From positions 125,586,023 to 125,650,022 of the forward strand of contig OU015523.1 in the NCBI GenBank assembly GCA_907165065.1: a stretch of DNA of 64,000 bases, written 5' to 3'. This DNA is from Caprimulgus europaeus. Its lineage: Eukaryota; Chordata; Aves; Caprimulgiformes; Caprimulgidae. This document shows, one piece after another, positions 11,001-14,000 of the stretch. Position numbers and translations under genes: made by a program. Each line of letters starts with the position of its first letter. The stretch's first letter is position 1. The notes under the pieces were generated by a model, which saw nothing but the letters and a program-made list of their open reading frames with translations, made no database searches and was not told where the DNA came from.

Positions 11001-14000
11001 CTGGGGTCAAGGAGCTGGTCAAGATCATAGTGCCTGGAGGGGAAAATAAATCATAAATACCTAGTGGTGTCCACATAAAATCACTGAATAGTGCTACTGA
11101 GTTCCTTCCCTCCACCCATCTCCAACTATTACATGTTTGTGATGTACATGGGTGTGCAGGGAGGAAAAGAGGAGGAGGAGGAAAAGAGGAGGAGGAGGAA
11201 AAGAGGAGGAGGAGGAAAAGAGGAGGAGGAGGAAAAGAGGAGGAGGAGGAAAAGAGGAGGAGGAGGAAAAGAGGAGGAGGAGGAAAAGAGGAGGAGGAGG
11301 AAAAGAGGAGGAGGAGGAAAAGAGGAGGAGGAGGAAAAGAGGAGGAGGAGGAAAAGAGGAGGAGGAGGAAAAGAGGAGGAGGAGGAAAAGAGGAGGAGGA
11401 GGAAAAGAGGAGGAGGAGGAAAAGAGGAGGAGGAGGAAAAGAGGAGGAGGAGGAAAAGAGGAGGAGGAGGAAAAGAGGAGGAGGAGGAAAAGAGGAGGAG
11501 GAGGAAAAGAGGAGGAGGAGGAAAAGAGGAGGAGGAGGAAAAGAGGAGGAGGAGGAAAAGAGGAGGAGGAGGAAAAGAGGAGGAGGAGGAAAAGAGGAGG
11601 AGGAGGAAAAGAGGAGGAGGAGGAAAAGAGGAGGAGGAGGAAAAGAGGAGGAGGAGGAAAAGAGGAGGAGGAGGAAAAGAGGAGGAGGAGGAAAAGAGGA
11701 GGAGGAGGAAAAGAGGAGGAGGAGGAAAAGAGGAGGAGGAGGAAAAGAGGAGGAGGAGGAAAAGAGGAGGAGGAGGAAAAGAGGAGGAGGAGGAAAAGAG
11801 GAGGAGGAGGAAAAGAGGAGGAGGAGGAAAAGAGGAGGAGGAGGAAAAGAGGAGGAGGAGGAAAAGAGGAGGAAAAGAGGAGGAAAAGAGGAGGAAAAGA
11901 GGAGGAAAAGAGGAGGAAAAGAGGAGGAAAAGAGGAGGAAAAGAGGAGGAAAAGAGGAGGAAAAGAGGAGGAAAAGAGGAGGAAAAGAGGAGGAAAAGAG
12001 GAGGAAAAGAGAAAACAGATAGGAGCAACTGCTACAATCCTTTGGCTCTTCTTTTCGAGCCTGCATCCAGACCATCACCACCTTTTCTTTTCTATGTGCT
12101 CCTCCTGCAGGTTTCTAAATGCCTTCAAAAAAAAAAGGCAGCTGCAGTGAAGCAGGTCACTGAACTCTTCAGACACAGAGAACACAGAAGAAAAAACCAC
12201 AAGTGTGCTCTGAAGCTCCAGTCTCCTCATCTGTGCCAGAGCAGCAGCCACAGCGCCGCCCCGCTCGGGCAGGGTGCACACACCAGGCAGGTTCCTGACT
12301 GGGAATGGTTCAGTAACACTGAAGCTGATGTCAAACCCCTGGTTTGGGAATTCAGGAAGTCACCAAGTGATCAAGATTTCTCCAAACCGTTTTTGAACTA
12401 TTTGCCCATTTACCTGTCACTGTAGAGCTTGAGCAGGTGGAAGCAGACATCTCTCAGAGGTCTTCCTGCGGTATCGCTGTCTTCAACCACACAACCAGAG
12501 TCCTCCAGGTAGGGAGGCAGAGGGCAGCAGGCGTATTTTTCACACTCCAGTGTGTTCTAAAGAAATAGTTTTTAACAGCAAGTTAAAAGAGAGTGCTCTG
12601 AACAAAACTGCACCAATTTCAACCAGCTCAGGAGCTCAGGAGCAGCAGAAGGGGCATCCTCCTGCCCCAGCAGTTGAAACTTACACAGCAACTATACACA
12701 AACATGAGAGTAAAAACACTAAACCCAAAATGCTTCTATAGAACCACAGGATCCCACACTGGTTCGGGTTGGGAGGGACCTTAAAGCTCCTCCAGTGCCA
12801 ACCCCCCTGCCAGCAGCAGGGACACCTTCCACTAGACCAGGTTGCTCAAAGCCTCACCCAACCTGGCCGAGAACACTTCCAGGGAGGAGCAGCCACAGCT
12901 TCTCTGGCCAACCTGGGACAGGGTCTCACCACCCTCTGGGTGAAAAATTTCCTCCTAATATCCAACCTAAATCTCCTCTCTCAGTTTAAAACCATTTCCC
13001 CTTGTGCCATCACTAGGCTTAATTTAATCTCATGCTGAGCTCTTAAAAGCCACTGTGTGGAGGCAGAGCCAGCTCTCACATATACAACCTGTGTTCCTCC
13101 ATGATTTTACAGCTGGAAAACCACACAGGACTTGATGGGACGAGGGACAGTGCATCCCTGCAAGCTTTCTCTCCCTCTGTAGCTAAGCAGAGCCTGGACA
13201 GTCAAGTGAGCAGCACTGAATGCACTGAGCCAACGAGAACTGTTTTGCAGGGCACTGAACTGCAAGAGAACTGTTGTCTTTCACACCATCTAACCAGCCT
13301 GGGTTGCAGAGACACTCCTGATGTTCTCACTGCTGCTGAGGACACCAGATCTGGGTTTGGAAGAGCATTCCATGTCCTGCTGGTTTCCAGTTACCAGCCC
13401 TCCTATGTGCAGTTCTGGAAATGAGTGGTATCACTCTCTTCTCCCAAGGGACAGGACAAGAGGAAATGGGCTCCAGTTGTGCCCAGGGCAGCTGAGATGG
13501 GATGTGAGGAAGAATTTCTTTGCTGCAAGGGTTCTGAGGCATTGGCAGGGGTTGCCCAGGGCAGTGGTGGAGTCCCCATCCCTGGAGGGATTGAAGAGTC
13601 GTGTAGACACAGTGCTGAGGGACAGGGGTCAGTGGGGACTGGGCAGTGTTGGGTTCATGGTTGGACTCCAGGAGCTCAAAGGGCTTTTCCAGTCCAGGCA
13701 GCTCTGTGTGAGGTTCTGGGTGGTATCTGCTTTTCCTCCACATCATGGGGCTGCAGTGAGGCCACCTCCACATTCCAACCTTGTAGCATTATCTTAAGTC
13801 AAGTCATGGCAAAACTAAAGGTGGGTATTTCCAAGTGATGAACACATTGTGCTGGCACTCAGGGCACAGACAACACCAAACACCCCGCGGCATCAGGCAC
13901 GGATCAGTGAGAAGCGACGAGACCCGACGCTGTGCTTGAGCTATCTTTAGCCAGAGAGATCAAGGGCTGAACTATCTTTAGTTAAATGATTAAACACTTT

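What the first reader, a model, noticed from the sequence alone, without database searches (positions are those of the whole stretch)
11161..12008. 840-bp perfect homopurine array with a sharp switch from 17-bp to 11-bp units inside NUP98
Seen directly: 41 exact 17-bp units then 13 exact 11-bp units, with no pyrimidine on the plus strand. The 17-bp unit equals the 11-bp unit plus two AGG triplets, so the longer form probably arose once and then took over most of the array by homogenisation. Long homopurine-homopyrimidine mirror-like tracts are known to form intramolecular triplexes and to stall polymerases. Perfect identity over 840 bp suggests very recent expansion, or an assembly-smoothed array.
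Basis: partly seen in the sequence, partly recalled or inferred. Interest (0 to 1): 0.75.

Follow-up and report, generated by a model that had tools for sequence, protein, structure and literature searches.

The report
Young two-block purine repeat in NUP98
An intron of a probable bird's NUP98 gene carries a flawless run of purine-only repeats in two clean blocks, most likely a young repeat expansion with no proven function, though its longer unit happens to be just long enough to fold into a known four-stranded DNA shape.

Summary
Window 11158-12015 is 858 bp with no pyrimidine on the + strand: 41 exact 17-mers (GAGGAGGAGGAGGAAAA), then 13 exact 11-mers (GAGGAGGAAAA), with one junction. It fills 62% of a 1380-bp intron in the NUP96 half of NUP98, 0.72 Mb from the contig end. 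The doubled 17-mer was reported 40 times in the 1.178-Gb genome, all here (the tool calls repeat counts lower bounds). Purity is exceptional: the longest exact periodic run is 714 bp, against 120 bp in a 41-copy array of the same gene.

Best reading: a young minisatellite grown by small, within-class duplications; array-wide conversion would not leave one junction. The triplex argument is weak: mirror symmetry does not exceed that of shuffled units. Better, but unproven, is a quadruplex argument: each 17-mer holds one (GGA)4, a sequence with a solved quadruplex fold, each 11-mer only (GGA)2. Two-block purine arrays with motif switches are known in human RFC1, so the kind is known. No comparison with other birds or with reads was possible.

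The parts
11158..12015 (+). homopurine tract (858 bp), whole array with its partial end units
11169..11865 (+). block of 41 exact 17-bp units GAGGAGGAGGAGGAAAA; each contains exactly one (GGA)4
   Evidence: doubled unit reported at this locus only
11866..12008 (+). block of 13 exact 11-bp units GAGGAGGAAAA; each contains (GGA)2
12009..12015 (+). short end unit GAGAAAA (7 bp), last purine-only remnant before the unique flank
11034..12413 (-). NUP98 (NUP96 part) intron, GT...AG, 1380 bp; the array is 62% of it, 398 nt from the donor and 124 nt from the acceptor; the transcript strand of the array is pure pyrimidine
   Evidence: splice sites read from the sequence and from the joined frame (SDR|HYDLDQ as in solved NUP96)
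10808..11033 (-). downstream NUP98 exon (NUP96 domain); its start, 11033, is fixed by the acceptor, its far end is approximate
   Evidence: Pfam Nup96 E 9.2e-27; human NUP96 chain 5a9q_5 E 1.7e-38
12414..12556 (-). upstream NUP98 exon (NUP96 domain); its end, 12414, is fixed by the donor, its far end is approximate
   Evidence: Pfam Nup96 E 0.00015, 21.4 bits, below the curated cut-off of 25 but contiguous in the profile (133-172, then 172-248)

Best explanation
It is a young, locus-specific intronic minisatellite of NUP98, 0.72 Mb from a contig end that is probably a chromosome end. A purine-rich seed became an 11-bp (or 17-bp) tandem unit, one unit gained (or lost) two AGG triplets once, and each class then grew by small duplications that stayed inside its own block, as expected of replication slippage or repair synthesis between identical neighbours. 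The array is spliced out as a pyrimidine-only RNA stretch and has no demonstrated function. Shown: composition, exact units, single junction, intron position, no second locus reported in the genome for the doubled 17-mer, purity beyond that of neighbouring arrays. Inferred: slippage as the process, youth, lack of function.
For: Exact units and one junction. The doubled 17-mer is reported 40 times genome-wide, all here, with 0 reversed-control hits. It lies between splice sites in an intact reading frame. It lies 0.72 Mb from the end of a 126.3-Mb contig. Tandem repeats (period 7 or more, 3 or more copies) cover 4.7% of the window and 0.16% of 200 kb of the contig's interior; of 33 kb nearer the end they cover 11.4%, but 2,899 of those 3,747 bp are the satellite in the last 3 kb, and without it the figure is 2.8%, all in 1 of 3 stretches. 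Growth simulations give one junction always for single-unit or within-class steps, in 5-9% of runs at a free mean block of 2 units, and in no retained run at 5 or more. The second NUP98 array is imperfect: 13 unit types among 40, longest exact run 120 bp. Tandem-filled introns are described in birds, with imperfect units (PMC12954441 section 7 part 1; PMC6792250 passages).
Against: PMC12954441 finds intron repeat coverage near zero outside chicken dot chromosomes (median), so 62% on a 126-Mb contig is atypical, although 36 of its 236 exon-stuttering introns are on macrochromosomes. Perfect purity over 714 bp is unlike the imperfect neighbours and may need a special cause: very recent growth, a structure-driven process or an assembly effect. 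The simulations start the new unit at the array edge, which favours one junction; a start inside the array would leave two. No polymorphism or outgroup data could be obtained.
Confidence: 0.7

Rival explanations
1. Structure-driven expansion. The change from (GGA)2 to (GGA)4 per unit made every unit a self-sufficient quadruplex on the purine strand; stalled synthesis at these folds then expanded the 17-bp class preferentially, much as CEB1 or RFC1 AAGGG repeats disturb synthesis.
For: Each of the 41 long units has four GG runs with 1-nt A loops and contains the d(GGA)4 sequence of entry 1myq. In ViennaRNA's quadruplex model (RNA parameters) one 17-mer folds at -18 kcal/mol, while one to three 11-mers and a hypothetical 14-mer do not fold. 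The block with one motif per unit is the longer one (41 against 13). Precedents: mutating the G4 motifs stabilises CEB1 in pif1 yeast (PMC2673046 passages); (AAGGG)8 but not (AAAAG)8 stalls a polymerase in vitro (PMC10954463 passages).
Against: A permissive two-tier motif search also finds 6 motifs spanning neighbouring 11-mers (41 in the 17-bp block), so the short block is not motif-free. G4Hunter is only 1.00 against 0.82 for the two blocks. Two-tetrad sequences with single-nucleotide (T) loops tend to fold between molecules (PMC13270197 passages), and short GGA repeats (n = 4) are said to tend to intermolecular folds (PMC10954463 passages). CEB1 instability favours pyrimidine loops and G triplets (PMC5491262 passages); here the loops are A and the runs GG. 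A single locus cannot show cause, and the unstructured RFC1 motif also expands (PMC10563062 abstract and opening text).
Confidence: 0.23
2. The perfect uniformity, the copy number or both are partly an assembly or polishing product; the real array is shorter, longer or has interruptions.
For: GA-rich sequence is a known weak point of some long-read data (recalled; no passage read), and tandem G4-prone bird introns sequence poorly (PMC6792250 passages). An 840-bp perfect array is hard to place for short polishing reads (inference).
Against: A 41-copy 30-bp array 18 kb away keeps 13 unit types among 40, so arrays were not generally flattened; the two unit classes are kept sharply apart; splice sites and reading frame beside it are intact.
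Confidence: 0.12
3. Triplex (H-DNA) element: the purine-pyrimidine tract folds intramolecularly, pauses polymerases and so affects NUP98 transcription or replication.
For: 858 bp of pure purine is long enough, and related GAA and AAGGG repeats form triplexes (PMC9296464 passages; PMC10563062 abstract). The 13-bp and 7-bp cores within the units are perfect mirrors (read from the sequence).
Against: Across units the mirror is imperfect, with 2 mismatches per unit (15/17, 9/11), no better than shuffled purine units. In PMC9296464 (passages) GAA repeats by themselves caused only mild stalling.
Confidence: 0.12
4. A splicing-active element: 55 UCUUUUC motifs in the intron RNA recruit pyrimidine-tract binding proteins, or template-strand quadruplexes slow RNA polymerase II, changing inclusion of the next exon.
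For: UCUU is 12.7 times denser in the array than in the same strand of the rest of the window (64.1 against 5.05 per kb); that this is a binding motif of PTB is recalled. Template-strand G4 in the upstream intron is associated with exon skipping in human (PMC3902930 passages).
Against: The array ends 124 nt from the acceptor, which has its own pyrimidine stretch. The exon encodes part of the conserved NUP96 domain, so skipping would be costly (inference). PMC3902930 describes G4 by longer G runs than the GG runs here (passage). [quoted passage not shown] Nothing here tests function.
Confidence: 0.07

Closest known systems
RFC1 intron 2 pentanucleotide expansions (CANVAS)
   Same: Intronic, mostly purine-only on one strand, unit variants differing in G content, alleles with two blocks such as (AAAGG)610(AAGGG)390 and (AGAGG)470(AAAGG)470; the G-rich unit forms quadruplexes (PMC10689911 passages; PMC10563062 abstract).
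   Different: 5-bp units and hundreds to thousands of copies; human disease locus; here 11- and 17-bp units, another gene, a change of unit length rather than base substitution, no phenotype known.
Avian intron 'sequence stuttering' and tandem-filled GC-rich introns
   Same: Locally born tandem repeats confined to one intron of a bird gene with intact exons (PMC12954441 section 7 part 1; PMC6792250 passages).
   Different: Those are mostly on dot chromosomes, with longer, imperfect units; this one is perfect, short-unit, purine-only and on a 126-Mb contig.
G4-forming minisatellites such as human CEB1
   Same: Each unit can hold a quadruplex motif; near a contig end (CEB1 is called subtelomeric in the PMC3486850 abstract, listing); instability depends on G4 in yeast (PMC2673046 and PMC5491262 passages).
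   Different: GGG runs and other loops in CEB1; here GG runs with A loops, and instability is untested.
GGA-repeat tracts such as the c-MYB promoter
   Same: (GGA)4 blocks forming tetrad:heptad quadruplexes that can stack in pairs (PMC6749722 passages).
   Different: Twelve near-continuous GGA in a promoter; here 41 separate (GGA)4 blocks spaced by AAAGA in an intron.

Membership tests
Minisatellite (tandem array, unit of about 7-100 bp) | head-to-tail copies of a unit of that size at one locus | tested here: met
   41 x 17 and 13 x 11 bp; 40 of 40 reported genome hits of the doubled 17-mer lie here
Minisatellite (VNTR) | length polymorphism between individuals | not testable with these tools
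   one assembly only; no reads; a search for a second NUP98 copy did not complete
H-DNA-forming mirror repeat | homopurine-homopyrimidine tract | tested here: met
   858 bp without a pyrimidine
H-DNA-forming mirror repeat | mirror symmetry beyond composition | tested here: not met
   15/17 and 9/11, reached by 40% and 95% of 5000 shuffles
G4-forming minisatellite | four G runs with short loops inside each unit | tested here: met
   41 of 41 17-mers have one GGAGGAGGAGGA, 0 of 13 11-mers; across neighbouring 11-mers a permissive search finds 6 two-tier motifs
G4-forming minisatellite | high G4 propensity score | tested here: inconclusive
   G4Hunter 1.00 and 0.82 for the two blocks; GG runs only, apart from one GGG at the edge. 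RFC1 (AAAGG)10 scores 0.94 and (AGAGG)10 1.12 in PMC10689911
G4-forming minisatellite | quadruplex-dependent instability in cells | not testable with these tools
   needs bench work
Avian intron stuttering | tandem repeats of local origin filling an intron, exons intact | tested here: met
   62% of the intron, exons in frame; doubled 17-mer reported nowhere else
Avian intron stuttering | dot-chromosome location and imperfect units | tested here: not met
   126.3-Mb contig; units exact
Dispersed satellite or transposon-borne repeat | same unit at many genomic places | tested here: not met
   40 of 40 reported hits lie in this array, counts being lower bounds by the tool's own word; neither flank matches elsewhere in the window; flanks were not tested genome-wide

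The most novel reading that the evidence does not exclude
The 11-to-17 step is a natural two-state experiment in cis: one 6-bp insertion took the unit from two to four GGA, exactly the minimum for a self-contained tetrad:heptad quadruplex, and that threshold, not chance, is why the 17-bp class grew to 41 perfect copies beside 13 of the parent class, giving a string of 41 potential quadruplexes on the template strand of an essential gene.
Probability: 0.2. Interest if true: 0.6.

Novelty: new member of a known kind. Interest (0 to 1): 0.38.

Why it matters
If the quadruplex-threshold reading is right, this locus carries a little-expanded and a strongly expanded unit side by side, differing by 6 bp, in a gene needed in every cell (recalled); copy number across individuals would then test directly whether unit-level G4 capacity drives minisatellite growth in vertebrate germ lines. 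If not, it is still a clean marker (a perfect, apparently single-locus, probably variable repeat) and a warning site for assemblies.

Tried and rejected
Dispersed satellite or mobile-element origin: rejected (flanks unique within the window). Phage and viral collections: no match; expected, these are not vertebrate collections. RNA family: no Rfam hit at the gathering score in the window. Coding role: the array is open in all six frames simply because purine- or pyrimidine-only DNA cannot spell a stop; it lies between splice sites. Mirror-repeat triplex as the leading idea: demoted. Homogenisation by array-wide conversion: rejected as the main process, with the caveats that these are simple models conditioned on the final make-up (60-90% long units for growth, 70-80% for conversion), that the growth models start from an edge unit, and that they discard most runs (400 accepted of 15,099 in the best case; 13 of 60,000 in the worst). 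Own-genome counts for the 11-mer trimer, for the flanks and for a second NUP98 copy did not complete by a busy machine, so the single-locus statement covers the 17-mer block only; the one answered DNA-similarity search returned nothing, but that tool skips simple repeats. A published report of this NUP98 array: not seen; the searches with NUP98 among the terms are 10 of 1,531 papers listed, zero NUP98 mentions in all 10; NUP98 and minisatellite: 4 papers, 3 listed, none about an intronic array by title or start of abstract. Comparison with other birds: no such collection on hand.

Full report
What is there. The + strand from 11158 to 12015 contains only A and G, 858 bases. Cut at each AAAA it falls into 41 identical 13-mers and then 13 identical 7-mers, i.e. 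41 copies of GAGGAGGAGGAGGAAAA and 13 of GAGGAGGAAAA (re-cut), with a partial unit at each end (AGGGAGGAAAA on the left, GAGAAAA on the right). The period-17 run is exact for 714 bp and the period-11 run for 157 bp; they overlap at one junction.

Where it is. NUP98 runs on the minus strand. The exon at about 10808-11033 matches Pfam Nup96 (E 9.2e-27) and human NUP96 in solved nuclear pores (E 1.7e-38); the exon at 12414-12556 is the preceding stretch of the same profile, 21.4 bits against a cut-off of 25. The intron is 12413-11034 (GTAAAT...CCCCTCCAG, 1380 bp) and the array is 62% of it, 398 nt from the donor and 124 nt from the acceptor. The neighbours fit the known order as I recall it: a nicotinic-receptor-type channel gene on the left (CHRNA10 by recall; Pfam LBD E 3.9e-32) and a Frag1/PGAP2-type gene on the right (E 8.4e-18). 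The window is C1:125586023-125650022 of a 1.178-Gb, 121-contig genome, and C1 is 126,318,510 bases long, so the array is 0.72 Mb from the contig end, which itself carries imperfect 52-bp satellite.

Is it special? Within the genome the doubled 17-mer was reported 40 times, exactly the number that 41 units give, all in this array, with none for the reversed control; the tool warns that counts of repeats are lower bounds. In 200 kb of C1 interior (20 evenly spaced stretches) the longest pure purine or pyrimidine run is 63 bp; in 33 kb sampled between the window and the contig end it is 166 bp, a GGGAA repeat. Tandem repeats cover 0.16% of the interior sample and 4.7% of the window; the 33 kb nearer the end show 11.4%, but most of that is the satellite in the last 3 kb, and the other three stretches show 2.8%, all of it in one of them. 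The terminal stretches are also richer in G+C (0.51-0.61 against 0.34-0.46). This tract is an outlier in purity: the other large NUP98 array (29607-30867, 41 copies of 30 bp) has 13 unit types among 40 and no exact run above 120 bp.

How it grew. The single junction is informative. With free block duplications and deletions, starting from a new unit at the array edge, final arrays of this make-up have one junction in all retained runs if steps are one unit, in 22-36% at a mean block of 1.5 units, 5-9% at 2, about 1% at 3 and none at 5 or more (one search gives 64% at 1.2 units and 7.5% at 2). If duplications are confined to identical neighbours, the junction always survives. Array-wide conversion gave a single junction in 0 of 1014 retained runs and neighbour-only conversion in 22.5% of 938. 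So growth inside each class fits, and 'homogenisation' across the array does not. A new unit inside the array would have left two junctions, so the edge start is part of the inference. Zero changes in 840 bp bounds a star-like age at roughly 0.5-1.4 million generations for assumed rates of 2.5-7e-9 (rates recalled). Which unit came first is undecided.

Structure. Mirror symmetry, which triplex formation needs, is 15/17 and 9/11 per unit and is matched by 40% and 95% of shuffled units; the cores AGGAGGAGGAGGA and AGGAGGA are perfect mirrors, so triplex is possible but not a special property. Quadruplex potential separates the two units more cleanly: every 17-mer contains exactly one GGAGGAGGAGGA, the sequence of solved structure 1myq (listed in PMC13270197), while an 11-mer has GGAGGA. 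ViennaRNA's quadruplex option (RNA parameters) gives -18 kcal/mol for one 17-mer, -36 for two, and nothing for one to three 11-mers or a hypothetical 14-mer. Against this, a permissive two-tier motif still occurs 6 times across neighbouring 11-mers (41 in the 17-bp block), G4Hunter rises only from 0.82 to 1.00, two-tetrad sequences with single-nucleotide loops and short GGA repeats tend to fold between molecules (passages), and the best-studied unstable minisatellite uses G triplets and pyrimidine loops. The purine strand is the template for NUP98, so the sense transcript itself cannot form these folds; it carries 55 UCUUUUC motifs instead.

Compared with what is known. Two-block intronic purine arrays with a motif switch are documented by long reads at human RFC1, e.g. 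(AAAGG)610(AAGGG)390 (PMC10689911 passages), where the G-rich unit forms quadruplexes and stalls a polymerase and AAAAG does not (PMC10563062 abstract; PMC10954463 passages), although both kinds expand. Tandem-filled bird introns are documented too, mainly on dot chromosomes and with imperfect units (PMC12954441 section 7 part 1; PMC6792250 passages). This array is therefore a new member of a known kind, unusual for its perfection, its unit-length switch and its exact match to the (GGA)4 minimum.

Verdict. A real, apparently single-locus, probably very young minisatellite with no shown function. The bold reading, that crossing from two to four GGA per unit set off the expansion, is testable and not excluded, but it rests on one locus.

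Noticed in passing
29607-30867: A second NUP98 intron is largely filled by an imperfect 30-bp x 41 minisatellite that starts 4 nt after what reads as the splice donor (CAG|GTGAGGCTCC, minus strand) and is G-rich on the transcript strand; 13 unit types among 40. Its splice sites were read by eye only.
   Followed up: partly
53676-53741: Perfect (GGCCCC)11 hexanucleotide array, the C9orf72-type motif (label recalled), in the GC-rich stretch between NUP98 and the Frag1-type gene.
   Followed up: no
53844-53888: A 45-bp GGA-rich purine tract, the only other place in the window with GGAGGAGGAGGA.
   Followed up: no
55794-58565: Cluster of four short GC-rich minisatellites (18/36-, 22-, 20- and 35-bp units).
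   Followed up: no
L023:5212-5377: A 166-bp GGGAA-type pure purine tract in the same terminal region (C1:125,950,001-125,960,000), with GGG runs.
   Followed up: no
L021:30-2998: The end of contig C1 is an imperfect 52-55-bp satellite with telomere-like GGGTT words rather than pure TTAGGG.
   Followed up: no
NUP98 introns, e.g. 8407, 13434, 16824, 19704: Repeated CR1-like LINE fragments (label recalled) translate to the same peptide words in several introns.
   Followed up: no
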